Assembly (NCBI RefSeq): GCF_031583025.1
Contig: NZ_CP134062.1
Span: 372,001 to 436,000 of the forward strand
Source: Mycobacterium sp. Z3061
GTDB lineage: Bacteria; Actinomycetota; Actinomycetes; Mycobacteriales; Mycobacteriaceae
Length of the DNA stretch: 64,000 nt
Direction: 5' to 3'
The notes beneath the pieces are model-generated. The model made no database searches and was not told the origin of the DNA. It saw only the letters and a program-made list of their open reading frames with translations. The position numbers and the translations under genes were made by a program. Shown here piece after piece: positions 49,725 through 63,977 of this stretch. Every line of letters starts with the position of its first letter. Within the stretch, counting starts at the first letter, position 1.

Positions 49725-50291
49725 CTAGCCCGCGCAGTCGCCCTCGGCGGTCGCGCGCAGCAGATCGTCGCGGGCCCGGGCCACCCGGGAGCGGATGGTG
49801 CCGACGGGACACCCGCAGACCTCGGCCGCTTCGGCGTAGGACAGGCCGAGCACCTGGGTGACGATCAATGCCTCCCGGCGCTTGGGGTCCAATCCGTCCA
49901 GCAGGATGCGGATCTCCACCATGTTCTCGATCCGGCTGCCGCGACGGCCCTGACCGAGCGCCTCGTCGAGGTCGGCCACCTGAGCGGAGCGGGGCCTGCG
50001 CATCTTGGACCGGAAGTGGTCGGCAACGACACGACGGGCGATCGAAAACAGCCAGGTCCGCGCGGTCGACCGCCCGGTGAAACTCGGCAGCGAACCCATC
50101 GCCCGCAGGAAAGTCTCCTGCGTCAGGTCGTCCGCACTGCCGGGATCGGCGAGGTAGGCCACCATCCGCCAGACGTCACGCTGGGTGCACCGGATGAATT
50201 CGGACAACGCTGCCCGGTCACCGCGCCCCGCGGATCTGGCGAGATCGGTAATTTGGTCGTCGTGAGTTCGTCCGTCACTGCCCGGGGCCAC
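49725..50291 (-). CDS. sigC: ECF sigma factor SigC
   Basis: 188 residues, like M. tuberculosis SigC (Rv2069, 185 residues). Region 2 contains DDLTQETFLRAMG and ARTWLFSIARRVVADH; region 4 contains LGLSYAEAAEVCGCPVGT then IRSRVARARDDL. These match remembered SigC closely. GTG start at 50291, diverging from the copper ATPase gene. In M. tuberculosis sigC lies far from ctpA; here they are neighbours, so the sigma factor sits with its likely targets: ctpA, the anti-sigma-like gene and the PPE-NRPS operon, all preceded by the same promoter. I see no such promoter before sigC itself. Confidence 0.92.
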   Translation of the reverse strand: MAPGSDGRTHDDQITDLARSAGRGDRAALSEFIRCTQRDVWRMVAYLADPGSADDLTQETFLRAMGSLPSFTGRSTARTWLFSIARRVVADHFRSKMRRPRSAQVADLDEALGQGRRGSRIENMVEIRILLDGLDPKRREALIVTQVLGLSYAEAAEVCGCPVGTIRSRVARARDDLLRATAEGDCAG

Positions 50292-50330
50292 GGGCTTTGA
50301 GCCTAGGCCATGCGAACATGACGAACGCAG

Positions 50331-50358
50331 GGAACTCTTGAACCGGCGCCGACGACTT
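50331..50358 (+). promoter_or_regulatory. SigC-type ECF promoter of the copper ATPase gene
   Basis: -35 box GGAAC (50331-50335, preceded by G) and -10 box CGACTT (50353-50358), 17 bases apart. The same boxes and spacing recur before the anti-sigma-like gene and the PPE gene, and the inner sequence TGAACCGGCGCCGAC is also nearly shared with the PPE promoter. Transcription would start about 30 bases before the GTG (50394), which has AGGAGG at 50377-50382. Confidence 0.72.
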
Positions 50359-50393
50359 GTCTAGGGACGAGTTCGCAGGAGGCGAGACACTAC

Positions 50394-52625
50394 GTGACGA
50401 CGGCAACGACTGACGCGCACCCAGAGGTGCAGCGGATACAACTGGACATCACCGGGATGTCCTGCATGGCCTGCGCGCTCAAGGTCAAATCGACCCTCAA
50501 CAAGCTGCCCGGCGTACGGGCTTCGGTCAATTTCTCCACCCGGGTGGCGACGCTCGAGCTCAGCGAGGACATTGCCACCGACGAGCTCTGCGCGGCCGTC
50601 GAGAAGGCCGGCTACCAGGCCGAGCCGCATACTGGCGGCGGTGACAACCTCGGCGACCCCGACGCCGATCATGCCCGGTACCTCCTGGTCCGGTTGGCGG
50701 TGGCGGCAGTGTTCTTCGTGCCGCTGGCGCACCTGTCAGTGATGTTCGCGGTGGTGCCCAGCTCCCGGTTCACCGGCTGGGGATGGGTGCTCACCCTGCT
50801 GGCGCTACCGGTCGTGGTCTGGGCAGCCTGGCCGTTCCACCGGGTCGCGCTGCGCAACGCGATGCACGGGACCGCGTCGATGGAGACGCTGATCTCGGTC
50901 GGGATCACCGCGGCCACGGTGTGGTCGCTGCACACGGCGTTCGGCACCCATCAAACCGCCGAACGCCGCGGTGTGTGGCAGGCGCTGCTCGGCAGTGACG
51001 CCATCTACTTCGAGGTCGCCGCCGGCGTCACGGTCTTCGTGCTGGCCGGCCGGTACTTCGAGGCACGGGCCAAGTCGCGGGCCGGCGGCGCGCTGCGGGC
51101 GCTGGCGGCCCTGAGTGCCAAGGACGTCGCGGTGCTGCAGGCCGACGGGTCGGAAGTGGTCATCCCGGCAGACCAGCTCAAGGAGCAGCAGCGCTTCGTG
51201 GTGCGTCCCGGGCAGACGATCGCCGCGGACGGCCTGGTGGTCGAGGGCCGCGCGGCGGTCGACGTCAGCGCGATGACCGGCGAGGCCAAACCGGTGAAAG
51301 TCCACCCGGGCGCCCAGGTGATCGGTGGCACCGTCGTGCTGGACAGCAGGCTGATCGTGGAGGCTGCCGCCGTCGGGGCCGACACCCAGTTCGCCGGAAT
51401 GGTGCGCCTGGTCGAGGAGGCGCAGGTGCAGAAGGCCGATGCGCAGCGGTTGGCCGACCGCATCGCGTCGGTGTTCGTTCCGTGCGTCTTCGTCATTGCC
51501 GGCCTGACCGCAGCCGGCTGGCTGCTGGCCGGGGCCGGCCCCGAGCGGGCCTTCTCGGCCGCGCTCGCGGTTCTCGTCATCGCCTGCCCGTGTGCCCTCG
51601 GCCTGGCGACGCCGACCGCCATGCTGGTCGCCTCCGGGCGCGGCGCTCAACTCGGCATATTTCTCAAGGGCCTGCACGCCCTGGAGGCCACCCGCGCCGT
51701 CGACACCGTTGTGTTCGACAAGACGGGCACCCTGACCACCGGCCAGCTGGCGGTCAGCGCGGTGACGGCCGCACCGGGCTGGGATGCCGATGAGGTGCTG
51801 GAACTGGCAGCGGTGGTGGAGGCGGCTTCCGAGCACGCCGTGGGCCTCACGATCGCGGCGGCCGTGCCGCAGCGGGATTCCGTTGCCGACTTCCGCGCGG
51901 TGCCCGGCCGCGGCGTCAGCGGCACCGTGCGAGGGCGCGCGGTGCGGGTCGGAAAACCCTCCTGGATTGCCGCGCCGGTTGGCGCCGGGGTGTTGACCGA
52001 CGCGCGACGTGACGCCGAGTCACGTGGTGAGACAGCGGTATTCGTCGAGGTCGACGGTGCGGTCTGCGCGGTCATCGCGGTCGCCGACGCGGTCAGGGAT
52101 TCCGCGGTGCCCGCCGTGGCCCAGTTGCACGACCGCGGCCTGCGAACCGTGCTGTTGACCGGCGACAACCCGGCATCGGCGGCGGCCGTGGCAGCCCGGG
52201 TCGGCATCGACGAAGTGATCGCGGACGTGCTGCCCGAAGGCAAGGTCGACGTGATCGAGCAACTCCGTGAACGTGGGCACGTGGTCGCGATGGTCGGTGA
52301 CGGCATCAATGACGGTCCGGCCCTGGCACGCGCCGATCTGGGCATGGCCATCGGGCGCGGGACCGACGTCGCGATCGGCGCCGCCGACGTCATCCTCGTC
52401 CGGGACAACCTCGAGGTCGTACCCCTGGCCCTGGGCCTGGCCGCGGCGACGATGCGCACCATCAAGGTCAACATGATCTGGGCCTTCGGCTACAACATCG
52501 CGGCCATCCCGATCGCCGCCGCGGGATTGCTCAACCCGCTGGTGGCCGGCGCGGCGATGGCCTTCTCGTCGTTCTTCGTCGTGTCGAACAGCCTGCGCCT
52601 GCGCAGCTTTGGCGAGAGCCGCTGA
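50394..52625 (+). CDS. ctpA: Copper-type P1B ATPase (CtpA/CtpB-like)
   Basis: 743 residues. N-terminal HMA domain with the copper motif [11 protein letters not shown] (about 21-31), eight membrane segments, TGEA actuator motif, CPC channel motif in [18 protein letters not shown] phosphorylation site, [10 protein letters not shown] hinge, and the Cu(I)-type sites FGYNIAAIP and [11 protein letters not shown] in the last helices. The HP motif reads SEHAVG (Ala for Pro). Position beside the zf-HC2 gene and PPE1 matches Rv0092 ctpA. Expected to move copper across the membrane to periplasmic or secreted cuproenzymes rather than simply detoxify, given the copper-acquisition context. Confidence 0.9.
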
Positions 52626-52627
52626 AA

Positions 52628-53326
52628 TCAGGCGGCTGAGCCGTCGGTGGGCCACAGGTGACCCCGGCGACGGCCCCGGGACGCGTTGTCCGGCAACACG
52701 ATATCGGTTTCGGCGGCCTGCGGCGCGGGCCCGGGTGCCGGGGAGGTTCGCCACACGATGGCCGCCAGGACCGCCCCCAGCACCACCGGCAGGTGGGTGA
52801 GCATCCGTCCGAGGGTGACGGAACCCGAGGCCGCGTCCAAGGCGATGTAGACGGCCAGTACCGCGACGAACACCATGAGTACCCCCGCCAGCCCTGCCGA
52901 CGCAGCCGGCCACAGCGCGGCGACCACCATGGATACGCCGAGCGCGACGCACCACGACGTGGATTCGTGGAGGAGATGATCGGTGCCGTCCATCCCGTGG
53001 TGCAGGCCTACATCCAGGCCCAAGCCCTGCACGACTGCCAGGGCAATCTGTGCGACGCCGACGCACATCAACGCCCAGCGTTGCCAGCTGAGTGACCGGC
53101 GCCGTCGCGGCGTCGGCTGCTGAATCCCGATCGGGCCCACCGGCGCGATGACCGGCCGGGACTCCACCAGGCGGCGCAGTTGGCGAGCCTGAAGACCCAC
53201 CTGCTCGAACCATTCGCGACAGGCGGCGCACTCGTCCAGGTGTTGATCGACCCGCGCCGACGGCACGGGCTCCCGCTCGCCGTCGAGCCGGGCCGACAGC
53301 GCTTCGCGCGCCACCTCGCAATCCAT
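52628..53326 (-). CDS. Zinc-finger (zf-HC2) membrane protein, probable anti-sigma factor, Rv0093c-like
   Basis: 232 residues. Cytoplasmic N-terminus with the ZAS motif His29-x3-Cys33-x2-Cys36 (HLDECAACREW), then four membrane segments (about 84-106, 123-140, 144-163, 178-192). A His-rich loop (GLHHGMDGTDHLLHEST) between segments 1 and 2 would face outside and could bind metal. Converges with ctpA, three bases apart, as Rv0093c does in M. tuberculosis. It is preceded by its own copy of the SigC-type promoter, which is typical of negative feedback. That it binds SigC is inference. Confidence 0.85.
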   Translation of the reverse strand: MDCEVAREALSARLDGEREPVPSARVDQHLDECAACREWFEQVGLQARQLRRLVESRPVIAPVGPIGIQQPTPRRRRSLSWQRWALMCVGVAQIALAVVQGLGLDVGLHHGMDGTDHLLHESTSWCVALGVSMVVAALWPAASAGLAGVLMVFVAVLAVYIALDAASGSVTLGRMLTHLPVVLGAVLAAIVWRTSPAPGPAPQAAETDIVLPDNASRGRRRGHLWPTDGSAA

Positions 53327-53333
53327 GCCCTAA

Positions 53334-53362
53334 TAGTCGCGCATGACGGGCGATTTGTTCCC
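53334..53362 (-). promoter_or_regulatory. SigC-type promoter of the anti-sigma-like gene; near-leaderless
   Basis: On the minus strand GGGAAC (53362-53357), 17 bases, CGACTA (53339-53334): the same boxes and spacing as at 50331 and 54223. The -10 box ends seven bases before the ATG (53326), so transcription probably begins at or next to the start codon. Confidence 0.72.
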
Positions 53363-53380
53363 GGCCCGTTACAGACTCGG

Positions 53381-54190
53381 CTATCCGAATTCGACGAGGG
53401 TGTTGGGCGCCCGTAACCGGTCGAGGGCAGAAAGCCGGTAGGTCAGCGCGACCACCTTGGGGAGGAACCGGCCGCGCGCCGGTGGTGCCGGCAGCTCGCG
53501 AACGGCGCGGACGCCGGGGACGGCACACAATTCGGCGTACTGGTTCGCGGTGAACCAGAACGGCATCGGCGGCGCCGTGTAGAACTCGCTGAGTTTGAAA
53601 CCGCGCCGCCGCGAATACACGCTCAGCAGCCACGGAATGCTGTCAAAGACCAACTGACCGCCGGGAAAGCGCCTGGCGCAGGCCTCGATCAGGTCGAATA
53701 CGGTTGCCCGCTCAAAGTATTGGAACAGACCCTCCGCGGTGATCAGCACGCCGTTGCCGGCGTCCACCCGATCCATCCACGAGTAATCGAGTGCGGACTG
53801 GGCGCAGTACCGCAACCGGTCGGAGGCGGGCAGCAGTTGCCGGCGTATGTGCACGATCGGCTCCAGATCCACCGACAGCCAGTTCAGTTCGCCGTTGTCG
53901 AGGCGCCAGAAGCTGGTTTGCAGCCCTTCGGCGAGCGCGACCACCGTCGCCCGCGGGTGGGTGGTCAGGAATTCGCGTGCGGCATTGTCGAAAGCCAGTG
54001 CCCGCAGCGCCGTCGCTTGGTGGGTCCGGCCGAAATGCTGGTAGTCGTAGTCGATGCGGTCGCGCAACGCGATGGCCATCGGATCGTCGATGATGCCGTC
54101 CGGCCGGGCGGCCTCGGTGGCTCGCTGATGCAGCGTCAGCAGTGCGGTCTCGGATACCCCGTCGAGGTGACGGGCGTCGAACGCTGGCAT
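53381..54190 (-). CDS. Class I SAM methyltransferase (LCM/TcmP-like)
   Basis: 269 residues. The N-terminal arm VSETALLTLHQRATEAARPD and the SAM segment TVVALAEGLQTSFWRLD then WLSVDLEPIVHIRRQL are typical of leucine-carboxyl-methyltransferase-like O-methyltransferases. The glycine-rich loop is altered. It lies between the anti-sigma-like gene and the PPE-NRPS operon, divergent from the latter with 128 bases between. O-methylation of the peptide product is possible but unsupported; it may only be a neighbour. Confidence 0.85.
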   Translation of the reverse strand: MPAFDARHLDGVSETALLTLHQRATEAARPDGIIDDPMAIALRDRIDYDYQHFGRTHQATALRALAFDNAAREFLTTHPRATVVALAEGLQTSFWRLDNGELNWLSVDLEPIVHIRRQLLPASDRLRYCAQSALDYSWMDRVDAGNGVLITAEGLFQYFERATVFDLIEACARRFPGGQLVFDSIPWLLSVYSRRRGFKLSEFYTAPPMPFWFTANQYAELCAVPGVRAVRELPAPPARGRFLPKVVALTYRLSALDRLRAPNTLVEFG

Positions 54191-54230
54191 GGGTCAGACA
54201 GTACTGACCCCCGGAAGTTGCGGGAACTTC
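54191..54230. promoter_or_regulatory. Two palindromes next to the PPE/NRPS operon promoter
   Basis: GGGTCAG-ACAGTA-CTGACCC (54191-54210) is a perfect 20-base dyad right before the methyltransferase ATG (54190). GAAGTT-GCGGG-AACTTC (54214-54230) is a second dyad that covers the -35 box of the SigC-type promoter. Both could be sites for a repressor that acts on top of SigC, or for a divergent promoter of the methyltransferase. Confidence 0.55.
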
Positions 54231-54250
54231 TGAAGTACCGGCGCCGACTA
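54223..54250 (+). promoter_or_regulatory. SigC-type promoter of the isonitrile lipopeptide operon
   Basis: -35 GGAAC (54223-54227, preceded by G) and -10 CGACTA (54245-54250) with 17 bases between. The match to the ctpA promoter also covers part of the spacer (TGAA, CCGGCGCCGAC). A transcript starting near 54257 would give a leader of about 60 bases with a consensus AGGAGG at 54306-54311. Confidence 0.75.
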
Positions 54251-54318
54251 ACACACCACGGGGCAACGCAAGGTCGGTTTCCGCCTCGCGCAATCGATCT
54301 AAGCGAGGAGGTGGCAGC

Positions 54319-55746
54319 CTGACCGGCCCGATATGGATGGCCCTGCCTCCGGAGGAGCATTCAGCTCTGCTGAATGCCGGGCTGGGTCCAGGATCATTGC
54401 TGGCTGCCGCGCAGGAGTGGCAAGGACTCAGCAACCATTACAGTGAAGCGGCCGCCGAGCTGAGCCGGGTGCTCGCCGGCGTGCAGGCCGGTAGCTGGCA
54501 GGGCGACAGCGCGAGCAAGTATGTCGCTGCCCACGGCCCCTACCTGGCGTGGCTCGAACAGGCCGCCGCCGACAGCGCCAATACGGCCGCGCAGCACGAA
54601 ACGGCCGCCATCGCATACAGCGCCGCCGTTGCGGCCATGCCCACCCTGGCGGAACTTGCCGCTAACCACGCGCTGCACGGCGTACTGGTCGCCACCAACT
54701 TCTTCGGCGTGAACACCCTCCCCATCGCCCTCAATGAGGCCGACTACGTCCGGATGTGGATTCAGGCCGCCGAGACCATGACCGTCTATCAGGCCACCGC
54801 CATGGGGGCATTGGCGACAACGCCGACGACTCCGCCGGCACCCCCCATCAGGGCGGCCAGTGCGGAAGCTCAAGCTGCTCCGGCCGCCCCGGCGGATTCG
54901 ATCGCCCAACTCATCGCGGATCTGGAAAACCTCATCGCCAACCCGTACCAGTATTTTCTGAACTTCTTCCAGCAACTCGGGTTCAGTCCCGCCACCACCG
55001 TTGTCCTGGCGGTTATCGCGCTGTTCCTGTACGACCTGCTCTGGTACCCGTACTACGCCTCGTATTCCCTGCTGCTGCTGCCGTTCTTCACCCCTGCGCT
55101 GAGCGCGCTGAGCGCGCTGAGGCTGCTGCTTCCGTTCCTGTTCGGCGAGCTGCCGGCCGGGCCGCTGCCGGTGGCCGCCGAACCGGGCCCTGCTACCCGT
55201 GCGGACGTCCTCACGAATATCGTTGTCGCGCCGCCAGTATCGGTTGCACCCGCGCCAAGCTCACCGGTGGGCAATCCCGCGCCCAGCGCGACCGCGCCGG
55301 CGCCGGCGACCAGCCCGGCGCCGGCCTCCACCATCAGCTACGCAGTGCCCGGCCTGGCGCCGCCTGGAGTCGGCGCCGGCCCCAGAGTGGGTGCGAAGGC
55401 GCCGGACAGCGTGGCCGACAGCGTCGACGCCGCGGCCCCGGCCCAGGTCGCCGCCGCGAGAGCCCAGAGCCGGCGCCGGCGCCGCGCCACCGCCGGGATA
55501 CGCGGCCATCGTGACGAATTCCTTGATGCCACAGCTGAAATGGACGACGCGCCCGAGGCCGGCACCGAGCCCGAACCCGCCTCCGCCGGCACCCGGGGAG
55601 CCGGCGGACTCGGTTTCACCGGCACCGCCGCAGCCCGCGCCGAAGCGCCGGCCGGAATCGCCCGATTGACCGACGACGGCTCCGGTGGCACCGTCCCGAT
55701 GCTGCCTGCCACGTGGCCGACCGACGCGACCTCGGGACGCCGATGA
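54319..55746 (+). CDS. PPE1: PPE family protein, PPE1 (Rv0096) orthologue
   Basis: 475 residues from CTG 54319, or 469 from ATG 54337. N-terminal PPE domain ([18 protein letters not shown] at about 55, [21 protein letters not shown] at about 125-145), then a hydrophobic helix ([20 protein letters not shown]) and a Pro/Ala-rich tail with the PPE1-like segment [13 protein letters not shown] and [15 protein letters not shown]1 opens the Rv0096-0101 operon; its role in export or uptake of the lipopeptide is inferred. The AGGAGG at 54306 is spaced for CTG 54319, which gives the common family start [11 protein letters not shown], whereas ATG 54337 has no such site. Confidence 0.9.
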
Positions 55747-55874
55747 TGCGAACTCTCATTGAGACGCCTTCAAGGATTACGCAAGAAACGGGCAAGCGAC
55801 TGCTGACACCCTCGGTTCATCTCAAGCCGCGCCGCCAGTGCGATACGGCGACATCATCGGAAGAATTCACTTAA
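55746..55874 (+). CDS. Possible small protein of 42 residues in the isonitrile operon
   Basis: The ATG overlaps the PPE1 stop as TGATG, an arrangement typical of translational coupling. The frame reads [20 protein letters not shown] and ends ATSSEEFT, stop at 55872-55874. No signal peptide or membrane helix. It fills most of the 204-base gap before the isonitrile synthase gene, a gap I recall as much shorter in M. tuberculosis. Not recognised as any family; it may be a chance frame. Confidence 0.35.
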   Translation: MRTLIETPSRITQETGKRLLTPSVHLKPRRQCDTATSSEEFT

Positions 55875-55950
55875 GGGGGTTGGACCATCACGGCACCTTA
55901 CCTGCACGCGCAGCCCTGACTCATTTTCTATCAGACAGGAAAGACACTCA

Positions 55951-56820
55951 ATGACACTTAACGTGAAAGGCGAGGGACTCGGTGCTCAGGTCACCGGGCT
56001 GGACCCCGCAAACCTGGACGATCTCGCTACCGAAGAAATCCGCGAGATCGTGTACAGCAACAAACTCGTCGTCCTCAAAGACGTCCATCCGACTCCGGAA
56101 CAATTCATCAAACTCGGCCGGATAATCGGTCAGATCGTTCCCTATTACGAGCCGGTCTACCATCACCACGAGCATCCGGAAATCTTCGTCTCCTCCACCG
56201 AGGAAGGGCAGGGCGTTCCGAAGACCGGCGCGTTCTGGCACATCGACTACATGTTCATGCCGGAGCCGTTCGCGTTCTCCATGGTGCTGCCGCTGACCGT
56301 GCCGGGAGCTGACCGCGGCACCTATTTCATCGACCTCGCCAGGGTCTGGGAGTCGCTGCCGGCCGCCGCGCAGGACCCGGTCCGGGGCACCTTCAGCACC
56401 CACGATCCGCGGCGGCACATCAAGATTCGCCCGCGTGACGTGTATCGGCCGATCGGCGAAGTCTGGGACGAGATCAACCGAACGACGCCCCCGATCAAGT
56501 GGCCGACGGTGATCCGCCACCCGCACACCGGCCAGGAGATCCTCTACATCTGCGCGACCGGCACCACGAAGATCGAAGACAAGGACGGGAACCTGCTCGA
56601 CCCGGCCATTCTGCAAGAACTGATGGAGGCGACGGGCCAACTCGACACCGAGTACAAATCGCCATTCATCCACACCCAGCACTATGAAGTCGGCGACATC
56701 ATTCTGTGGGACAACCGTGCTCTCATGCACCGCGCGAAACACGGCACCGCCGCAGGTCATTTAACCACCCACCGTCTGACGATGTTGGACGGACTCAAAA
56801 CACCAGGATATGCAGTATGA
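55951..56820 (+). CDS. Isonitrile-forming non-haem iron(II)/2-oxoglutarate oxygenase (Rv0097/MmaE/ScoE-type)
   Basis: 289 residues of the TauD fold. Iron ligands are visible: HxD in FWHIDYMF (about His110, Asp112) and the distal His in DNRALMHRAKHG; the 2-oxoglutarate Arg is in TTHRLTMLDG. Rv0097-type enzymes convert an N-carboxymethyl-3-aminoacyl group to a 3-isocyano acid by oxidation and decarboxylation. Position between PPE1 and the FcoT gene matches the M. tuberculosis order. The stop overlaps the FcoT start (ATGA), so both are translated together. ATG 55951 has AGGAAAG before it. Confidence 0.92.
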   Translation: MTLNVKGEGLGAQVTGLDPANLDDLATEEIREIVYSNKLVVLKDVHPTPEQFIKLGRIIGQIVPYYEPVYHHHEHPEIFVSSTEEGQGVPKTGAFWHIDYMFMPEPFAFSMVLPLTVPGADRGTYFIDLARVWESLPAAAQDPVRGTFSTHDPRRHIKIRPRDVYRPIGEVWDEINRTTPPIKWPTVIRHPHTGQEILYICATGTTKIEDKDGNLLDPAILQELMEATGQLDTEYKSPFIHTQHYEVGDIILWDNRALMHRAKHGTAAGHLTTHRLTMLDGLKTPGYAV

Positions 56821-57380
56821 GTACCATCACTTTGTCCCCTTCCACACGGACGCGGACCGAATTCGCGGACATCAGCGACACCGCTTCGATAGAAGAGCAT
56901 TTGCTGGTCAAGGTGCTCGACCCGTACGAATACAAAGGGTGCCGCTACCTCATCGACGCGAGTTACAGGGCCACGGCGGATTCGGTACTCGCCTACGGGA
57001 ATTTCAGTATCAGCGAGCCGGCCTACATCCGCAGCACCGGGCATTTCAACGCGGCGGAATTGATTCTGTGCTTCAACCAGCTCGCGTACAGCGCGTTCGC
57101 GCCGGCGATCCTCAACGAGGAGATTCCGGTGCTGCGGGGTTGGTCGATCTCGGACTACTTCGACCTCCAACTGCCCAGCATGTTGATCAAGAACACTGCC
57201 TCCCGCTTCAAGAGGATGATTCACGCCCAGAAGTTCTCCGCACGGCTGCTCTGCCAGGACTTCGAGGTGATCGATCGCAATCTGCGTTACCTGTCGATCA
57301 AGTGCGCCATCGAGTTCTGGGACGAGTACGGCGGGGCCGCGTCCGGCGAGGTCGAGCTGGCGGCCCTCAACATCCCGTAG
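56817..57380 (+). CDS. fcoT: FcoT/ScoD-type hotdog thioesterase (Rv0098 orthologue)
   Basis: 187 residues; FcoT of M. tuberculosis has 183. Motifs of that family are clear: LDPYEYKGCRYLIDASYRA, ELILCFNQLAYSAF and LLCQDFEVIDRNLRYL. In the isonitrile pathway this protein is reported to add glycine to the beta carbon of an enoyl-ACP and then release the acid; it was first described as a long-chain acyl-CoA thioesterase. ATG 56817 overlaps the stop of the oxygenase gene by four bases. Confidence 0.9.
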   Translation: MSTITLSPSTRTRTEFADISDTASIEEHLLVKVLDPYEYKGCRYLIDASYRATADSVLAYGNFSISEPAYIRSTGHFNAAELILCFNQLAYSAFAPAILNEEIPVLRGWSISDYFDLQLPSMLIKNTASRFKRMIHAQKFSARLLCQDFEVIDRNLRYLSIKCAIEFWDEYGGAASGEVELAALNIP

Positions 57381-57406
57381 AGCACCACAGAAAGCACCTG
57401 AACGTC

Positions 57407-58990
57407 ATGTCTCACTTAGCATCAACCGTCTTGGAACGGGTCTTCGAACAGGCGCGGCTGCGGCCCCAGGCGACCGCCCTGCGCCGGTGCGACGGCAAGA
57501 GCTCGCTGCGGTACTCCGAACTGGTGGCCGAAGTGAGCGCGCTCGCCGCGACGCTTCGGACGCGGTCGGTATCCCCGGGCTCCCGGATACTCGTCCTGTC
57601 GGACAACGGGCCCGAGACATACCTCTCGGTGCTGGCCTGCGCGAAACTCGGGGCGATCGCGGTGCTGGCCGACGGAAACCTGCCGCCGGCCACCATCGAT
57701 CGTTTCGCCGAAATCACTGCTCCGAGCGCGATTCTCATCGCGCCTGGGAGCAGAACCGACCTGTCCACCCTGTCCCAGAGCCTGCACTCCATACCGGTGG
57801 TGAAGGTCCAGCTCAACGGTCACGCCGGGAATTCCGTTGTCACAGATGACGATTACCGCTGTCCGGATCGCGGTGCCGACGATCCACTGGCGATGATCTT
57901 CACCAGCGGGACGACCGGCGAGCCGAAGGCCGTACTGCTGGCCAACCGCACCTTCTACGCCGTCCAGGACATTCTGCGCGAAACCGGGCTGAACTGGGTC
58001 AGCTGGGTGGACGGCGAAACCACCTACTCGCCGTTGCCGGCGACGCATATCGGCGGATTGTGGTGGATACTCACCTGTTTGATGCGCGGCGGACTGTGCA
58101 TCACCGGTGGTGAGAACACCACGTCCCTGCTGGAGATTCTCAGCAGGAACGAGGTCGCGACGACATGCGTCGTCCCGACCTTGCTTTCGAAACTGATCGC
58201 CGAATTGAAGGCGACCGATGAAAAGATCCCGTCGCTACGACTGCTCGGCTACGGCGGATCTCGGGCGATCGCGGCCGACGTCCGGTTCATCGAAGCGCTG
58301 GGCGTGCGCACCGCACAGGTCTACGGATTGAGCGAAACAGGTTGCACCGCTTTATGTCTGCCGACCGACGAAGACTCGATTGCCAAGATCGAGGCCGGTG
58401 CGGTGGGGCGGCCCTATCCCGGAGTCCAGGTGTACCTGGCCGGTCCTGACGGCGCCGGGCCCGCGGCGCCGGGTGCTGGGCCCTCCGCCTCCTTCGGCAC
58501 GCTCTGGATCAAGTCTCCGGCAAACATGCTGGGGTACTGGAACAATGCCGCGCGAACGCAAGAGGTGCTGGTGGACGGATGGGTCAACACCGGAGATCTG
58601 CTCGAGCGCCACGAGGATGGTTTCTTCTACATCAAGGGAAGATCGTCGGAGATGTTCATCTCCGGTGGTGTGAATATCGCGCCCGACGAGGTCGACCGCA
58701 TCGCTGAAGGCGCAGACGGCGTCCGCGAAGCCGCGTGCTACGAGATCCCGGACCCGGAGTTCGGGGCCCTGGTAGGCCTGGCCGTGATTCCTTCGGCGGA
58801 GCTGGACGAGTCGGCGGCCCGCAAGCTCAAGCAGGTGATCGCTGCCCGCTTCCGGGAGCAGTCGGAATCGATGGCACGGCCCTCGACGATCGAGATCGTC
58901 CCCGAAATCCCACGAACACAGTCCGGTAAGGTCATGCGGGCATCGCTGGCCGCGTCGCTCGGCAAAGCCGGGGTGGCCGGTCATGGCTGA
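57407..58990 (+). CDS. fadD10: Fatty acyl-AMP ligase FadD10 type (ScoB/MmaB)
   Basis: 527 residues. Adenylation motifs: A3 FTSGTTGEPKAVLLA, A5 VYGLSETGCTALCLP, A7 NTGDLLER, A8 GRSSEMFISGGVNIAP, A10 RTQSGKVMR with the catalytic Lys. FadD10 activates a fatty acid (or the glycine adduct) as acyl-AMP and loads the ACP of the next gene rather than CoA. Fits Rv0099 by length and place. The stop overlaps the ACP start by eight bases. ATG 57407 is 26 bases after the FcoT stop. Confidence 0.92.
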   Translation: MSHLASTVLERVFEQARLRPQATALRRCDGKSSLRYSELVAEVSALAATLRTRSVSPGSRILVLSDNGPETYLSVLACAKLGAIAVLADGNLPPATIDRFAEITAPSAILIAPGSRTDLSTLSQSLHSIPVVKVQLNGHAGNSVVTDDDYRCPDRGADDPLAMIFTSGTTGEPKAVLLANRTFYAVQDILRETGLNWVSWVDGETTYSPLPATHIGGLWWILTCLMRGGLCITGGENTTSLLEILSRNEVATTCVVPTLLSKLIAELKATDEKIPSLRLLGYGGSRAIAADVRFIEALGVRTAQVYGLSETGCTALCLPTDEDSIAKIEAGAVGRPYPGVQVYLAGPDGAGPAAPGAGPSASFGTLWIKSPANMLGYWNNAARTQEVLVDGWVNTGDLLERHEDGFFYIKGRSSEMFISGGVNIAPDEVDRIAEGADGVREAACYEIPDPEFGALVGLAVIPSAELDESAARKLKQVIAARFREQSESMARPSTIEIVPEIPRTQSGKVMRASLAASLGKAGVAGHG

Positions 58991-59228
58991 GACGATCCGG
59001 GACAAGGTGCTCGCCGCCGTCTGCGATGTGTTGTACATCGACGAACAGGATCTGCACGATGGCGACGGCACTGACCTTCGAGACCTCGGACTGGATTCCG
59101 TTCGCTTCGTCCTGCTGATGAAAAGGCTTGACGTGGACCGGGAATCCGACGTGCCGGCCCGCCTGGCGGAGGATCTCTCGATTGCCGGGTGGGTTCGGGA
59201 GCTGGAGAATCTCTGTGAGCGCGCCTGA
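58983..59228 (+). CDS. Acyl carrier protein of the isonitrile pathway (Rv0100/MmaC type)
   Basis: 81 residues. The 4'-phosphopantetheine Ser is in DLGLDSVRFVLL at about residue 39, in the usual four-helix ACP pattern. It should carry the fatty acyl chain from FadD10 through glycine addition. Its gene overlaps fadD10 by eight and the NRPS gene by fourteen bases, so the three proteins are made in close ratio. Confidence 0.93.
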   Translation: MAETIRDKVLAAVCDVLYIDEQDLHDGDGTDLRDLGLDSVRFVLLMKRLDVDRESDVPARLAEDLSIAGWVRELENLCERA

Positions 59229-62200
59229 AGTCTGGGTGGACCGCCTCACGCTGAGCAGGTCGCAACAGAACCTCTACAACGGAGTGCTGCAGGACGGCGA
59301 TCCGTCGCTGTACCTGATCGGCAAGACGTACCGATTCCACCCGCTGCAGCTGCCGAGATTCCTGGCCGCCCTGGAGGCCATGGTCTGCGAGAATCCGATT
59401 CAGCTCTGCGTCTTGGAGACACCGGCGTCGGACAGCGACTATCCCCGCCTGGTACCCCGGCTGCGGTTCGGCGACATCGTGCGGGTGCGGTCGGGCGAAA
59501 TGCAGAGTGCTGGTGATGAATTCGAACTCCAGCGCACCTGGTCTTCCGGGATCCTCGATACCGCGCTGGTGCGGTACACCGTGTGGACCAACCCGGACGG
59601 CGATGTGTCCGGCCTCGACGTGCATGCGCACCACATCGTGGTCGACGGTGGCGCCACCGCGATCATCGAAGCCGACCTGGCCCGCCACCTCGCGGCCGGC
59701 GGCGCCGCGGAACTGCCCTCTCTGGCCAAGGGTTTGACGAAGCTGGCGCAGGCGCATCGTCGTGAACTGGCGAAGACCGATGAGACGCTGCACCGCGTCG
59801 GTGCCGCCGTGCAGCGCGAGCTCGCCGAGGATGCGCGCCTCGCCGGGCCCGCTCAGAGCCCGCACGCCGCCGGATCCGCCGCCAAGGGGATCCTGCAGGA
59901 ATCCGTGACGATAGCCGGGGAGGCCTTCGACGCGCTCCTGCGGCTGTCGGAGACCGAGCAGGTCCCGCTCAACGTCCTGGTGGCCACGGCGGCACTGGCG
60001 GTGGACGCAGGCCTGCGGCACGACACCGGGGGCCTTCTCGTCCACGCCGTCGACAACAGATTCGGTGATCCGGACCTCAATGTCGCTACGTGCCTGGTGA
60101 ATTCGGTGGCGCACCCGGTGAGGTTCGCTCCCTTCGCGTCGATCCGCGACGTCGTGCGGGCGGTCGACCGGGGATACGTCAGGGCGGTGCGACGACGCTG
60201 GCTGCGTGAGGAGCAGTACCGGCGAATGTATCTGGCGACCAACCGGACCTCCCGTGTCGACGCGCTGACACTGAACTTCATCCGCGAGACATGCGCGCCC
60301 AGCCTTCGCCCGTACCTGATCCAGGCGCCGGTCGCGACGGATATCGGCCCGATCGAGGGCAGGACCGTAGCCAGCGTGCTTGACGAAGATCAGCGCGTCC
60401 TCAACGTGGCCATCTGGGACCGGTCGGACCAGCCGGAATCCCGGATCCCGGTTGCCAACCGGATCGCCGCGGCACTCGGATCGATGGTGAGTCTGTGGGA
60501 TCAACCGATCGCGAAGGCCGTTGACGAATGGTTCGAACTCGGCCCGGACGGGTCCATCGGCTCAGGCACCACGGATATCGACACGCCCCGGCAGCGTGCC
60601 TGGTTTGTGGACGGGGCCGTAGCGGTCCGCGCGGCCCTCGCGGACCGGCCCGCAGTCCACCAATGGATCGCCTATCTGGTGCGCAGCGGCATCGCGCCCG
60701 GTGACGTCGTGGTGCTCACCGACGACGACACCGGCAACACCATTGACTGCCTGATCGCGACCCATCTGGCCGGCTGCGGATACAGCATCTGCGATGCGCC
60801 CGAACAGCTTTCGGCGCGCGCACAGGCCATCTCCGAGCACCTGGAGGGCGCGACGGCGCAGGTGCTCGACGTACGCGGCGTGGACCTGCCGGTGGCCTTG
60901 GATGAGGACGCCGGCGCGCGCCTCGCCGAACGCCTTACCCAAGTGGCACAGGACATGTCACTCGGAACCAAGACGGCCTACATCATGCCGACCTCGGGTT
61001 CCACCGGCCAGCCCAAGCTGGTCAGAGTCACCCATGAATCGCTGGCGCTGTTCTGTGCCGCCGCGGTCAGCGCCTACGGTTGGGGCCCGCAGGACACCTT
61101 ATTGCAGTGCGCGCCGCTGACTTCCGACATCAGCGTCGAGGAGATCTTCGGTGCCGCCGTCAGCGGAGCGGAGTTGGTGCGAACCACGGCGATGAAAGCG
61201 GGCGATTTCGACCGACTCGCCAAGGATCTGGTTGCCGGCGGCGCGACGCTCGTCGACCTGCCCACCGCCGTGTGGCATCTGCTGTGTGAAGATACCGAGG
61301 CGGTGGACGCGATCCGGCGTTCGCGTCTTCGGCAGATCGTGGTCGGCGGCGAAGCGCTTCGCCCGGCCGTTGTCGACAGATGGCTGAGCTCGGTTGCGGG
61401 ACAACGAGTCGAGCTGGTGTCGAGCTATGGACCCACCGAGACCACCGTCGTTGCAACCTATTTGCCGATCGGTTCGGACGGCGCGGTCGAGGCACGGCGA
61501 CGGCTTGGGCGACCGATAGTGCCGGGCACGGTGTGTATCGCCTTCGGTGAGGTTGTGATCGTCGGGGGCCTGGTCTCCGCCGGATACCTCGGGACGGACG
61601 ACCGCAGCTTCGGTACCGTCACCGCCGCTGACGGTACGCAACACCGCGCATTCGCCACCGCCGACCGGATGATCCTGGACGCCGAGGGATTCCCGCTCTT
61701 CGCCGGCCGCAAAGACGATGTCGTCAAGGTGGCCGGAAAGCGCGTCGACATCGCGGACATCGCCAGGCGCATATCCGCGGACCCCGCGATAGCCGATGTC
61801 GCGGTCGAATTGCACGACGGCCGCCTCGGCGTGTGGTTTCAAACCCTGCAGACCCGCGAAGCCGACGGCGACCCGGCCGGGCGGATCCGAAACATACTGG
61901 TGAGCAACGGGGTATCCGCGTTCTTCGTGGTGGTGACCTCGACCATCCCGCGCAAGCCCGGCGGAAAGGTGGACAGCGCCAACCTCCGAACGATGCCCGA
62001 GTTCGTGGATAGGTTGCCCGACGACACCGAAACCGCCGAGATCGCAGTCGGTCTGGCGCGGCTGTGGAGCCGGCACCTGGGGACAGTCATTGAGCCCGAC
62101 ACGTCGCTGCTCGCCGCCGGCATCGGTTCGCTGGACCTCATCAGAATCCTTCCTGACACCAGACGAGCTCTCCGGCAACAGGTTTCGATCCTGGACCTGA

Positions 62201-63366
62201 TCAGTGCCGACACCGCCGCCAACCTCGTCACCGACCTGGCCGGTGCCGTGACGACCGGGTGGATGGACCCGGCGACCGCCATCGAGATACAACGCGACCT
62301 CGAGGACCTGCGGACACCCCGCGCCGGCTGTTGCGCCTCGCCCCACGCCGGCGGCGCGATCCTGGTGCTGGGCGCGTCAGGCATCCTGGGCACCGGATTC
62401 GCCGGTGCGATCCTCGACCTCAAGCGGTCCGGAGTCCGGTGTCCCGATGTGGTCCTGGCGAGCCGATCCCAACCGGAGCACGGCCCGTGGTCGGACCTTC
62501 AAGATGTCGAAGGCGTTCGGATCAGCCGGCTTTCACCCGATTTCGGGCCGGCGGAACTGGACGCGCTGATCCGCGATACCGGCGCCGGAACCGTCATCAA
62601 CTGCATCGGCAATACCAACGTGCTCATTCCCTACCGCGAACTTCGGACGGCGAACGTGGATCTGGTTTCCTCGATCGTCGGCGTGTGCGCGGACCGGAGT
62701 GTCAGGTTGGTGCACTTGTCGACGTTCGTCGTCGACGCCGAGGTCACCGCTGCCCGCGTCACCGATCCGCGGACTGCGCCTTACCCCTACGCGGCGTCCA
62801 AGTCGCTCGCGGAACTGGCGGTGGCCGGCGCGCCAAATGGACTCGACTTCACCATCGTGCGGTTGCCCCGGGTACTGGGCGAGGACAGTCAGCTGCGGGA
62901 CTCCGCGGACATCCTGGTATCGGTCGTGGATGCCTGCGCCGCGCTGGGTGCATACCCTGCGCTGACGCTGGTCGAGGAGGTCACCACCGGACGTGCTGCC
63001 GCGACCGCGATCCTGAGCCTCCTACCGGAGGTTTCGGGTGTGCGGGAGCTGGGACGGGGCATCACCGTGGCGCGTGGCGAGGCCGTGGACTATGCAGACT
63101 TGCTCGGCGGGTTTGCGCTCGACGAACTCGACGTGGCCCAGTGGAAGCAGCGGCTCGATGACAGCGAGTGGGCGACGGCGAACCCGCGCCGGTGGTCGGT
63201 GGTGGATGCGTGGGTGAGCCTGGGCATGCGCCTGAGGGGGCGCTCGTACGCCGAGTACCTCGCGGAGTACCCGACCATCGCCCTCGACCTCGAATCCGTT
63301 ACCGAACTCGCCGCACCACCACCGTCGGTCCACACCCTGCTGGCGCGAGAATTCCAGGGTGTCTGA
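59215..63366 (+). CDS. Single-module NRPS, C-A-PCP-reductase (isonitrile lipopeptide synthetase; Rv0101 relative)
   Basis: 1,383 residues. Condensation domain (about 10-430) with HHIVVDG at 139-145; adenylation domain (about 450-910) with A3 TSGSTGQPKLV near 590, A5 SSYGPTETTVV, A8 GRKDDVVKVAGKRVDIADI and A10 IPRKPGGKVDS; PCP with Ser near 973 (GIGSLDLIRIL); thioester reductase with LGASGILGTG near 1052 and YAASK near 1191. It should load an amino acid (lysine in studied relatives), acylate its amino groups with isocyano fatty acids, and release a reduced product. Nrp of M. tuberculosis is about 2,512 residues with two modules, so one is absent here. Frame and termini are intact. GTG 59215 has GGAG before it. 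Confidence 0.9.
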   Translation: MSAPEVWVDRLTLSRSQQNLYNGVLQDGDPSLYLIGKTYRFHPLQLPRFLAALEAMVCENPIQLCVLETPASDSDYPRLVPRLRFGDIVRVRSGEMQSAGDEFELQRTWSSGILDTALVRYTVWTNPDGDVSGLDVHAHHIVVDGGATAIIEADLARHLAAGGAAELPSLAKGLTKLAQAHRRELAKTDETLHRVGAAVQRELAEDARLAGPAQSPHAAGSAAKGILQESVTIAGEAFDALLRLSETEQVPLNVLVATAALAVDAGLRHDTGGLLVHAVDNRFGDPDLNVATCLVNSVAHPVRFAPFASIRDVVRAVDRGYVRAVRRRWLREEQYRRMYLATNRTSRVDALTLNFIRETCAPSLRPYLIQAPVATDIGPIEGRTVASVLDEDQRVLNVAIWDRSDQPESRIPVANRIAAALGSMVSLWDQPIAKAVDEWFELGPDGSIGSGTTDIDTPRQRAWFVDGAVAVRAALADRPAVHQWIAYLVRSGIAPGDVVVLTDDDTGNTIDCLIATHLAGCGYSICDAPEQLSARAQAISEHLEGATAQVLDVRGVDLPVALDEDAGARLAERLTQVAQDMSLGTKTAYIMPTSGSTGQPKLVRVTHESLALFCAAAVSAYGWGPQDTLLQCAPLTSDISVEEIFGAAVSGAELVRTTAMKAGDFDRLAKDLVAGGATLVDLPTAVWHLLCEDTEAVDAIRRSRLRQIVVGGEALRPAVVDRWLSSVAGQRVELVSSYGPTETTVVATYLPIGSDGAVEARRRLGRPIVPGTVCIAFGEVVIVGGLVSAGYLGTDDRSFGTVTAADGTQHRAFATADRMILDAEGFPLFAGRKDDVVKVAGKRVDIADIARRISADPAIADVAVELHDGRLGVWFQTLQTREADGDPAGRIRNILVSNGVSAFFVVVTSTIPRKPGGKVDSANLRTMPEFVDRLPDDTETAEIAVGLARLWSRHLGTVIEPDTSLLAAGIGSLDLIRILPDTRRALRQQVSILDLISADTAANLVTDLAGAVTTGWMDPATAIEIQRDLEDLRTPRAGCCASPHAGGAILVLGASGILGTGFAGAILDLKRSGVRCPDVVLASRSQPEHGPWSDLQDVEGVRISRLSPDFGPAELDALIRDTGAGTVINCIGNTNVLIPYRELRTANVDLVSSIVGVCADRSVRLVHLSTFVVDAEVTAARVTDPRTAPYPYAASKSLAELAVAGAPNGLDFTIVRLPRVLGEDSQLRDSADILVSVVDACAALGAYPALTLVEEVTTGRAAATAILSLLPEVSGVRELGRGITVARGEAVDYADLLGGFALDELDVAQWKQRLDDSEWATANPRRWSVVDAWVSLGMRLRGRSYAEYLAEYPTIALDLESVTELAAPPPSVHTLLAREFQGV

Positions 63367-63371
63367 TCGGG

Positions 63372-63977
63372 TCAGGCCTGAAAAACCATGATGCAGAACA
63401 TGATTGCCATGCCCGCGGCCGTGGTCGCCTGAACCAGGGCGCCCAGTCTCGCACGCCACACCGGGCCCTCGCGGCGGCGGCGCAGCGTCATGAAGAGGTA
63501 GCTCCACACAAAGGCGGCCAGCACGAACACGGCGGCCCAGATCCAGTTGACCGTGGTGATCCAACCGTGCGAAGTGTCCGTCGACGCTGCCTGCATTTCC
63601 GGCATCGCGGGCATGCTCGACATCGAAGGGCGTTCGGGTGTCAGATGTCCACCCATCGCGGCGTACATCCATGCCATCGCCACCATCTTCAGCGCGTGGT
63701 AGCCGAGCGCCAGGCGTGCGCCGATCATCCGGGCGGCGAGGACGGCGACGATCAGGAACCACAACGCCGCGGCCAGGAAGAACGCCTCCGCGGGTGTCGG
63801 CGGCAGCCCGAGTGCCTCCGGCCAGGCCATCGCCGCCATGGCGATCGCCATCGCGACGTGCAGTGCGTGGCTGATCACCGAGGTCCAGGATCTCCGGTCG
63901 GTGGCGAGGGCGAAGCCCACGGCGCTGAACAGGAACAGGCCCGTGACCACCCACCGCAGCGGCAGATCGTCGATCAT
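63372..63977 (-). CDS. DUF5134 membrane protein with a Met-rich loop
   Basis: 201 residues. Five or six membrane segments (about 8-24, 33-50, 60-85, 90-110, 142-165, 180-200). Between segments 4 and 5 is a Met-rich loop, PSMSSMPAMPEMQ, of the kind that binds Cu(I), and several His lie at membrane edges. DUF5134 has no known activity but occurs near copper genes in actinobacteria. It converges on the NRPS gene, six bases apart. A role in copper entry or sensing is inferred from the loop and context. The start ATG 63977 has GAGGAAC before it. Confidence 0.82.
   Translation of the reverse strand: MIDDLPLRWVVTGLFLFSAVGFALATDRRSWTSVISHALHVAMAIAMAAMAWPEALGLPPTPAEAFFLAAALWFLIVAVLAARMIGARLALGYHALKMVAMAWMYAAMGGHLTPERPSMSSMPAMPEMQAASTDTSHGWITTVNWIWAAVFVLAAFVWSYLFMTLRRRREGPVWRARLGALVQATTAAGMAIMFCIMVFQA

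What the first reader, a model, noticed from the sequence alone, without database searches (positions are those of the whole stretch)
49725..63977. One copper-acquisition locus: sigC, copper ATPase, anti-sigma-like gene and complete isonitrile lipopeptide operon
M. tuberculosis keeps sigC (Rv2069) apart from Rv0092-Rv0101. Here the sigma gene, the P1B ATPase, the Rv0093c-like zinc-finger membrane protein, PPE1, the isonitrile synthase, FcoT, FadD10, ACP, NRPS and a Met-rich DUF5134 protein are contiguous. Isonitrile lipopeptides are reported copper-binding chalkophores and SigC has been tied to copper supply, so this arrangement shows the logic of the regulon directly.
Basis: partly seen in the sequence, partly recalled or inferred. 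Interest (0 to 1): 0.9.

Follow-up and report, generated by a model that had tools for sequence, protein, structure and literature searches.

The report
SigC copper-starvation gene cluster
This mycobacterium keeps a copper-starvation switch (a sigma factor and its likely off-switch protein), copper pumps and the genes for a copper-grabbing molecule side by side, with a matching promoter sequence in front of three of the units, which points to a testable candidate for the off-switch and hints that some relatives swapped in a different sigma factor.

Summary
The regulon reading is supported: GGGAAC-N17-CGAC occurs three times in 64 kb (0.31 expected), before ctpA, rscA and PPE1 only. Among 76 distinct unfused rscA upstreams from several families 43 carry it, 41 of them 36-37 nt from the start codon, so RscA is probably an autoregulated, leaderless anti-sigma; in 38 of 99 mycobacterial SigC frames RscA and SigC are one protein. 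One premise needs correction: this SigC is the unfused, ctpA-linked type (A), whereas M. tuberculosis SigC groups with clade B (mostly RscA-fused). Two 3.27-Mb genomes keep a decayed A-type SigC beside ctpA and an intact SigC-B elsewhere, so the split arrangement looks like sigma replacement, not relocation. Contiguity is common: 20 of 35 operon-bearing genomes of the genus sample. SigC control of the operon, the SigC-copper link and a putative rscA are in print. Direct copper sensing by RscA is inference.

The parts
49725..50291 (-). sigC, ECF sigma factor (unfused, ctpA-linked type A)
   Evidence: NF007231 SigC 227.1 bits, cut-off 219; tree
50330..50356 (+). SigC-type promoter GGGAAC-N17-CGAC before ctpA
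   Evidence: 3 hits in window, 0.31 expected; a site in 42 of 61 distinct ctpA-type upstreams
50394..52625 (+). ctpA-like P1B-1 copper ATPase, divergent from sigC (103 bp by BLAST ends)
   Evidence: TIGR01511 494.7 bits, cut-off 397; CPC, YN, MxxSS, GMSCMAC motifs
52628..53326 (-). rscA (Rv0093c-like): ZAS zinc-finger anti-sigma candidate with about four TM helices
   Evidence: zf-HC2 37.8 bits; C3 H29 C33 C36 and membrane-part H117 E121 D164 H178 invariant in 26 rows; four hydrophobic peaks in the near-identical L035 copy; fused to SigC in 38 of 99 SigC frames
53336..53362 (-). SigC-type promoter before rscA, -35 start 36 nt from the ATG (leaderless mRNA inferred)
   Evidence: same spacing in other families
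53381..54190 (-). SAM-dependent methyltransferase, conserved near PPE1 or the operon, role unknown
   Evidence: PF04072 29.5 bits, cut-off 22.3; seen in 24 of 28 scoE loci (one of them cut), one locus ends before it, absent in 3
54222..54248 (+). SigC-type promoter before PPE1 and the isonitrile operon
   Evidence: 54 of 74 distinct PPE1-type upstreams
54337..55746 (+). PPE1-like PPE-PPW protein
   Evidence: PF00823 199.2 bits, PF18878 41.4
55951..56820 (+). ScoE-type isonitrile-forming oxygenase/decarboxylase (Rv0097-like)
   Evidence: NF049937 488.3 bits, cut-off 400
56817..57380 (+). FcoT thioesterase
   Evidence: PF10862 190.8 bits
57407..58990 (+). FadD10 ligase
   Evidence: NF004515 983.9 bits, cut-off 726; frame check
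58983..59228 (+). acyl carrier protein
   Evidence: PF00550 35.8 bits
59230..63366 (+). NRPS (adenylation, carrier, terminal reductase; N-terminal part not typed by Pfam); start codon chosen by me
   Evidence: TIGR01746 thioester reductase 163.8 bits, below its curated cut-off 213.35
63372..63977 (-). DUF5134 Met-rich membrane protein
   Evidence: PF17197 106.5 bits; H40, M43, M47, M98, M101, M190, M193 invariant in 20 rows

Best explanation
A self-contained copper-starvation regulon. SigC is held at the membrane by RscA, a ZAS-type anti-sigma factor with about four membrane helices. When copper outside the cytoplasm falls, RscA lets go; SigC then starts transcription at GGGAAC-N17-CGAC promoters of ctpA (copper delivery to envelope cuproenzymes such as the aa3 oxidase), of PPE1 and the isonitrile lipopeptide operon (copper capture), and of rscA itself, probably as a leaderless mRNA, which resets the switch. 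Shown here: gene contents, contiguity, promoter-like sites and their fixed place, SigC-RscA co-occurrence, linkage and natural fusion, invariant ZAS and membrane residues. From the literature: SigC dependence and copper function in M. tuberculosis. Inferred: binding of RscA to SigC, leaderless start, four-helix topology, and that H117/E121/D164/H178 form a copper-sensing site.
For: Sites: 3 in the window vs 0.31 expected, each before one of the three units; in 2.76 Mb of related loci (overlaps and the own genome included) 292 sites vs 14 for the reversed pattern; by distinct upstreams ctpA-type 42/61, PPE1-type 54/74, unfused rscA 43/76, control 0 in the classes tested. Of the 43 rscA sites 41 lie 36-37 nt from the start codon. 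SigC and rscA: 95 genomes both, 1 sigC only (63% complete), 2 rscA only, 50 neither, of 148 (relatedness not corrected). One-frame RscA-SigC proteins in 38 of 99 SigC frames (96 distinct genes by their first 120 SigC residues). RscA profile match of 150 bits or more in 50 of 80 SigC loci of named records, with Nocardia, Amycolatopsis, Micromonospora and Salinispora among them. Outside the genus sigC lies 122 bp (G250) and 1.6 kb (G295) from scoE, with SigC-type sites in both stretches. Literature: SigC needed in low copper (PMC7924339), chalkophore feeds the aa3 oxidase (PMC12140626), loss of nrp alone induces the operon (PMC9600254).
Against: No binding or expression data here. AlphaFold on a natural RscA-SigC fusion gave good domains (pLDDT 81.6) but pTM 0.53 and no readable interface; a first model was poor (pLDDT 50.6). 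The site is missing before 33 of 76 distinct unfused rscA genes and before all 47 fused ones, before 19 of 61 ctpA-type and 20 of 74 PPE1-type genes. Genome-wide the motif with Y after GGGAAC is not above its control (22 vs 21). ctpB-like and CtaG-type genes here have no site, although ctpB is a reported SigC target in M. tuberculosis. PMC8999054 says control of M. tuberculosis SigC by its own conformation has been proposed. None of 15 Corynebacterium SigC loci has an RscA match.
Confidence: 0.75

Rival explanations
1. RscA is the anti-sigma factor but does not itself sense copper: it senses a consequence, such as oxidase or redox state (through the ZAS cysteines), or it is cleaved by a membrane protease.
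For: [quoted passage not shown] ZAS cysteines are invariant.
Against: H117, E121, D164 and H178 in the membrane part are invariant across families (26 rows), which fits a metal site; loss of nrp alone induces the operon in cells not chelated of copper (PMC9600254).
Confidence: 0.4
2. SigC needs no anti-sigma factor; it is kept inactive by its own folding, and RscA serves another sigma factor.
For: Proposed for M. tuberculosis SigC (PMC8999054); PMC7924339 says no anti-SigC is identified; G074 and G091 have an rscA match without sigC.
Against: 95 of 96 sigC genomes have rscA; 38 of 99 SigC frames are fused to it; 43 of 76 unfused rscA genes carry the SigC-type site.
Confidence: 0.08
3. The operon is mainly controlled by Rip1/PdtaS/PdtaR and the ppe1-5' RNA, and SigC is secondary.
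For: In M. tuberculosis the nrp cluster is a reported target of Rip1/PdtaS/R in nitric oxide resistance, and ppe1-5' is the RNA most induced by a copper chelator (PMC9600254, passages); Rip1 is said to integrate nitric oxide and excess copper through a small RNA (PMC10449499, passages).
Against: The passages read do not show that this pathway causes the copper-starvation induction; sigC loss lowers operon expression in copper-poor medium (PMC7924339); the SigC-type site is conserved before PPE1.
Confidence: 0.1
4. sigC simply moved away from the cluster in the lineages where it is apart, rather than being replaced by a second SigC.
For: The published wording only says that the putative rscA lies elsewhere from sigC (PMC6917791). 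The three unfused mycobacterial SigC clades are not resolved against each other.
Against: Decayed SigC copies still lie beside ctpA in G115 and G075 (93.2 and 76.3 bits to the window's SigC; 52.0, with a further piece of 30.0, and 57.8 to a clade-B SigC), with intact SigC-B elsewhere; clade B has SH-aLRT 100; G057 and G143 hold both kinds.
Confidence: 0.07

Closest known systems
SigC/ppe1-nrp/ctpB copper regulon of M. tuberculosis (PMC7924339, PMC9147137)
   Same: Same enzymes, PPE1, copper ATPases; SigC is reported (in BCG) to bind upstream of ppe1 and ctpB with nearly the same -35/-10 elements
   Different: There sigC is elsewhere, monocistronic, and by similarity of clade B; here A-type sigC and rscA sit in the cluster. 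The ctpB-like gene here has no SigC-type site
putative rscA near sigC in M. marinum (one gene between) and the M. mucogenicum clade (four or five between) (PMC6917791)
   Same: sigC and the putative anti-SigC gene close together
   Different: That paper's main text does not contain the word copper; no promoter of rscA was seen in the passages read
ECF36 sigma factors, some fused to an N-terminal anti-sigma with 3-4 TM helices and DUF2275 (PMC8999054); sigC-Rv0093c fusion in M. avium complex (PMC7563442)
   Same: Same group by the review's placing of M. tuberculosis SigC; the fusions counted here look like this kind
   Different: The window's pair is separate and rscA has its own SigC-type site; 0 of 47 fused ones do. 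Pfam gave zf-HC2 only, no DUF2275, for the window protein
Sco diisonitrile cluster of Streptomyces (product SF2768; gene set recalled, product named in PMC9600254)
   Same: ScoE-type oxygenase, FcoT-like, ligase, ACP, NRPS with reductase
   Different: Adds PPE1 and the SigC/RscA/ATPase module

Membership tests
SigC (ECF36) sigma factor | SigC model above cut-off | tested here: met
   NF007231 227.1 bits vs 219
SigC (ECF36) sigma factor | same clade as M. tuberculosis SigC | tested here: not met
   M. tuberculosis fragments: 188.6/111 bits with clade-B L063, 122/74.2 with window; window ranks 125 of 180. Fragments only, not in the tree
ZAS anti-sigma factor | zf-HC2 with HxxxCxxC | tested here: met
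   37.8 bits vs 22.2; C3, H29, C33, C36 invariant in 26 rows
ZAS anti-sigma factor | binds and inhibits its sigma factor | not testable with these tools
   AlphaFold of a natural fusion inconclusive on the interface
ZAS anti-sigma factor | gene under the promoter type of its sigma factor | tested here: met
   53336-53362; 43 of 76 distinct unfused rscA upstreams; promoter activity not tested
Diisonitrile lipopeptide (chalkophore) cluster | ScoE-type enzyme, FcoT, FadD10, ACP, NRPS with terminal reductase, in order | tested here: met
   reductase by Pfam NAD_binding_4 above its cut-off, TIGR01746 below its curated cut-off
Diisonitrile lipopeptide (chalkophore) cluster | product binds copper | not testable with these tools
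   no chemistry here
P1B-1 copper ATPase | copper subfamily model and CPC/MxxSS/HMA motifs | tested here: met
   494.7 bits vs 397; motifs (motif names recalled)

The most novel reading that the evidence does not exclude
RscA is a copper sensor in its own right: a polytopic anti-sigma factor in which invariant H117, E121, D164 and H178, all on the outer face if the four-helix topology holds, bind envelope copper and keep SigC bound; SigC drives rscA back from a leaderless mRNA. In the leprae-like genomes, and by inference M. tuberculosis, the local A-type SigC died and a SigC-B without its own fused anti-sigma took over both the regulon and the orphaned A-type RscA, a partner swap that would explain why no anti-SigC gene was found next to sigC.
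Probability: 0.35. Interest if true: 0.8.

Novelty: new variant of a known kind. Interest (0 to 1): 0.6.

Why it matters
PMC7924339 asks how M. [quoted passage not shown] The intact cluster gives a concrete candidate with promoter, topology and residues to test, and it can be tested in harmless actinomycetes that carry a linked SigC-RscA pair. It also suggests a sigma-factor replacement with a change of partner as a way for a regulon to be rewired.

Tried and rejected
AlphaFold of the natural RscA-SigC fusion (M. bohemicum record L183) with 13 fused rows: pLDDT 50.6, unusable. With 94 rows (13 fused, 33 RscA-only, 48 SigC-only, of 116 prepared; I left out near-duplicates and some Corynebacterium rows): domains good, best PDB matches are SigC and other ECF factors, but no readable contact between the zinc-finger and sigma parts. 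A relation between the RscA membrane part and DUF5134 was tested by hhalign: probability 0.8%, rejected. PDB search with RscA: no hit at E 0.1. The motif as a genome-wide regulon finder: with Y after GGGAAC 22 sites vs 21 control; with a start codon 4-12 nt after it 12 rows (11 distinct sites) vs 6 control: not usable alone. tRNA scan: none.

Rows dropped before counts: only ctp hits of 67% identity or more were kept (itself cut its list), and the second, weaker scoE hits of G018 and G143 were left out. One search dropped SigC hits under 90 bits and frames under 60 residues. One search counts include overlapping and duplicate loci; removes identical upstreams within a class, across the rscA classes (which changed 45 sites in 79 to 43 in 76). 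Not located: G206's SigC (row cut). No supplements of papers were read.
Full report
Gene content. Genes were typed with Pfam and NCBIfam and frames checked. In order: sigC (-), ctpA-like copper ATPase (+), rscA (-), a SAM-methyltransferase (-), PPE1, ScoE-type oxygenase, FcoT, FadD10, ACP, NRPS (all +), DUF5134 (-). Past the window come a Caa3_CtaG protein and a second P1B copper ATPase.

How common. In a sample of 148 genomes of the genus (tabulated) 96 have sigC (E 1e-40 or better), 97 rscA (1e-8), 35 scoE (1e-60). All 35 scoE genomes have sigC and rscA. scoE lies within 15 kb of sigC in 20 of 35, all 20 with a ctp gene within 15 kb of sigC and 19 with rscA within 20 kb. sigC and a ctp gene (67% identity or more) are divergent within 300 bp in 44 of 96 sigC genomes. 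So the linked arrangement is the commonest one in this sample, not a peculiarity of this genome. Broken contigs can hide further linkage. Of the other 15, G018 and G063 have an unfused SigC on another contig, nine have a clade-B SigC and four (G050, G088, G092, G147) one of its unfused sister group.

Promoters. GGGAAC-N17-CGAC occurs at 50330-50356 (+), 53336-53362 (-) and 54222-54248 (+), and nowhere else in 64 kb; 0.31 expected, and none of 100 shuffles reached 3. The sites precede ctpA, rscA and PPE1. In 2.76 Mb of loci (L033-L214, overlaps included) there are 292 sites (spacer 16-18) against 14 for the reversed pattern. By distinct 250-base upstreams: ctpA-type 42/61, PPE1-type 54/74, DUF5134 18/37, scoE 10/31, CtaG-type 3/47, sigC 6/159, unfused rscA 43/76, fused rscA 0/47; the reversed pattern is 0 in each class. 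Of the 43 rscA sites, 41 have the -35 start 36-37 nt before the start codon; the spacers differ while GGGAAC and CGAC stay (they stay by definition of the exact pattern, so degenerate sites are not counted). In the window the CGAC ends 9 nt before the ATG, so the transcript should begin at or next to the start codon (inference). A fourth site in this genome, at 755832, lies directly before another PPE gene. The ctpB-like, CtaG-type and DUF5134 genes of this genome lack a site even with a relaxed pattern, and genome-wide the motif with Y after GGGAAC is at background (22 vs 21).

RscA. It has a zf-HC2 domain and four hydrophobic peaks (on the copy in the same-species genome G006). Across 26 RscA proteins the invariant residues are C3, S11, D15, E17, H29, C33, C36 (zinc-finger part), R83, Q93, H117, E121, D164 and H178 (membrane part); in 125 distinct sequences the corresponding membrane His/Glu/Asp columns are 99-100%. 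With four helices and the zinc finger inside, H117/E121 and D164/H178 face outward together, and a SigC fused at the C-terminus would be inside, as it must be (inference). SigC and rscA co-occur in 95 genomes, 1 has sigC only, 2 rscA only, 50 neither (Fisher p 7e-36, not corrected for relatedness). In named records of Actinobacteria an RscA match of 150 bits or more lies within the fetched flanks of 50 of 80 SigC genes, a weaker or partial one in 7, none in 23, and none in the 15 Corynebacterium loci.

Two kinds of SigC. A tree of 180 SigC rows (quick method, SH-aLRT) puts the window in a 25-row clade (99) of unfused SigC; two further unfused mycobacterial clades (15 rows, 95; 17 rows, 94) are not resolved against it, so 'A type' here means unfused and ctpA-linked, not one proven clade. 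The fused proteins fall in a 58-row clade (100, clade B), which also has a few unfused members. M. tuberculosis SigC, available here only as PDB fragments 2o7g and 2o8x, scores 188.6 and 111 bits with clade-B L063 but 122 and 74.2 with the window protein; the 12 best of 180 rows by the sigma-2 fragment are all in clade B and the window ranks 125. G057 and G143 hold both kinds. Two genomes of 3.27 Mb (G075, G115; leprae-like by size only, unnamed) have a clade-B SigC, unfused, 1.05 and 0.64 Mb from scoE, an open A-type rscA in the cluster (63% to the window, 38-41% to B type), no RscA match near their sigC, and beside ctpA a decayed SigC with stops and frame breaks that matches A type best. The split arrangement in such genomes is therefore best read as loss of the local SigC and take-over by SigC-B. 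That this holds for M. tuberculosis is inference: none of my searches returned an M. tuberculosis genome, and Rv0093c itself was not compared.

Beyond the genus. In a 249-genome sample of the order, 5 genomes outside the genus have a scoE match (E 1e-70): sigC lies 122 bp away in G250 and 1.6 kb in G295, about 28 kb in G361, was not located in G206 (row cut), and G351 is not among the genomes with a sigC match at 1e-40. G250 has rscA, sigC, scoE, fcoT, fadD10 and an NRPS together, with SigC-type sites 36 nt before the rscA start and 36 nt before an in-frame ATG of scoE. In G295 the site lies some 200 bases before a different gene ahead of scoE, so its meaning is less clear; G206 and G351 show no exact site. 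In named records Allokutzneria (L159) has rscA-sigC-scoE-fcoT-fadD10-nrp, with a site before rscA but none found before scoE, and two Nocardia (L152, L153) have fadD10, fcoT and scoE about 8 kb from sigC at the edge of the fetched stretch. Three of nine Amycolatopsis loci and one of two Gordonia loci have sigC with a copper ATPase and a CtaG-type gene but no operon in the fetched flanks. The copper module with SigC thus looks older than the chalkophore link (inference).

Mechanism and literature. SigC induction raises ctpB and ppe1-nrp, and a sigC deletion lags in copper-poor medium (PMC7924339, abstract, first part of section 2 and section 2.8 read). The diisonitrile operon and PPE1 are needed in low copper, and loss of nrp induces the operon without a chelator (PMC9600254, passages). 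Chalkophores keep the bcc:aa3 oxidase working (PMC12140626, passages). [quoted passage not shown] PMC7924339 section 2.8 states that no anti-SigC has been identified and asks how copper deficiency is sensed. Others already speak of a putative rscA near sigC (PMC6917791, passages), of sigC-Rv0093c fusion in the M. avium complex (PMC7563442, passage), and of ECF36 members fused to anti-sigma factors (PMC8999054, passages). I found no paper on a SigC-type promoter of rscA, on two kinds of mycobacterial SigC, or on SigC with isonitrile clusters outside mycobacteria in the listings, which cover open-licence PMC papers only; most of the listed papers were not opened.

Verdict. The locus is a complete copy of a known regulon in what is probably its older, linked form, with a different kind of SigC from that of M. 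tuberculosis. What is new is the promoter evidence that ties rscA into the regulon across families, and the apparent sigma replacement. Copper sensing by RscA is a hypothesis that these residues make testable.

Noticed in passing
window 53381-54190: A SAM-methyltransferase gene sits near PPE1 or the operon in 24 of 28 scoE loci (one of these cut at the locus end); it is absent in L054, L057 and L058, and L047 ends before it. It may act on the lipopeptide.
   Followed up: partly
L045:10759-11157, L049:9505-9861 and similar: In several relatives a small stand-alone HMA (copper-chaperone-like) frame of about 110-150 residues follows nrp; none was found at that place in the window's genome.
   Followed up: partly
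G000:C1:755832-755870 (L240): A further SigC-type site lies directly before another PPE gene whose N-terminus resembles PPE1 by eye.
   Followed up: partly
L074, L160, L173 and similar: Fused rscA-sigC genes of clade B have a divergent PPE1-like gene with a SigC-type site, also in a genome without a scoE match (G100, L074).
   Followed up: partly
L072 (G143): The RscA part beside the clade-B sigC is broken into three frames while that SigC is open and an A-type SigC is present beside ctpA.
   Followed up: no
L034:1375-1977, alignment A4: DUF5134 has invariant Met and His residues (H40, M43, M47, M98, M101, M190, M193 in 20 rows), suggesting copper handling.
   Followed up: no
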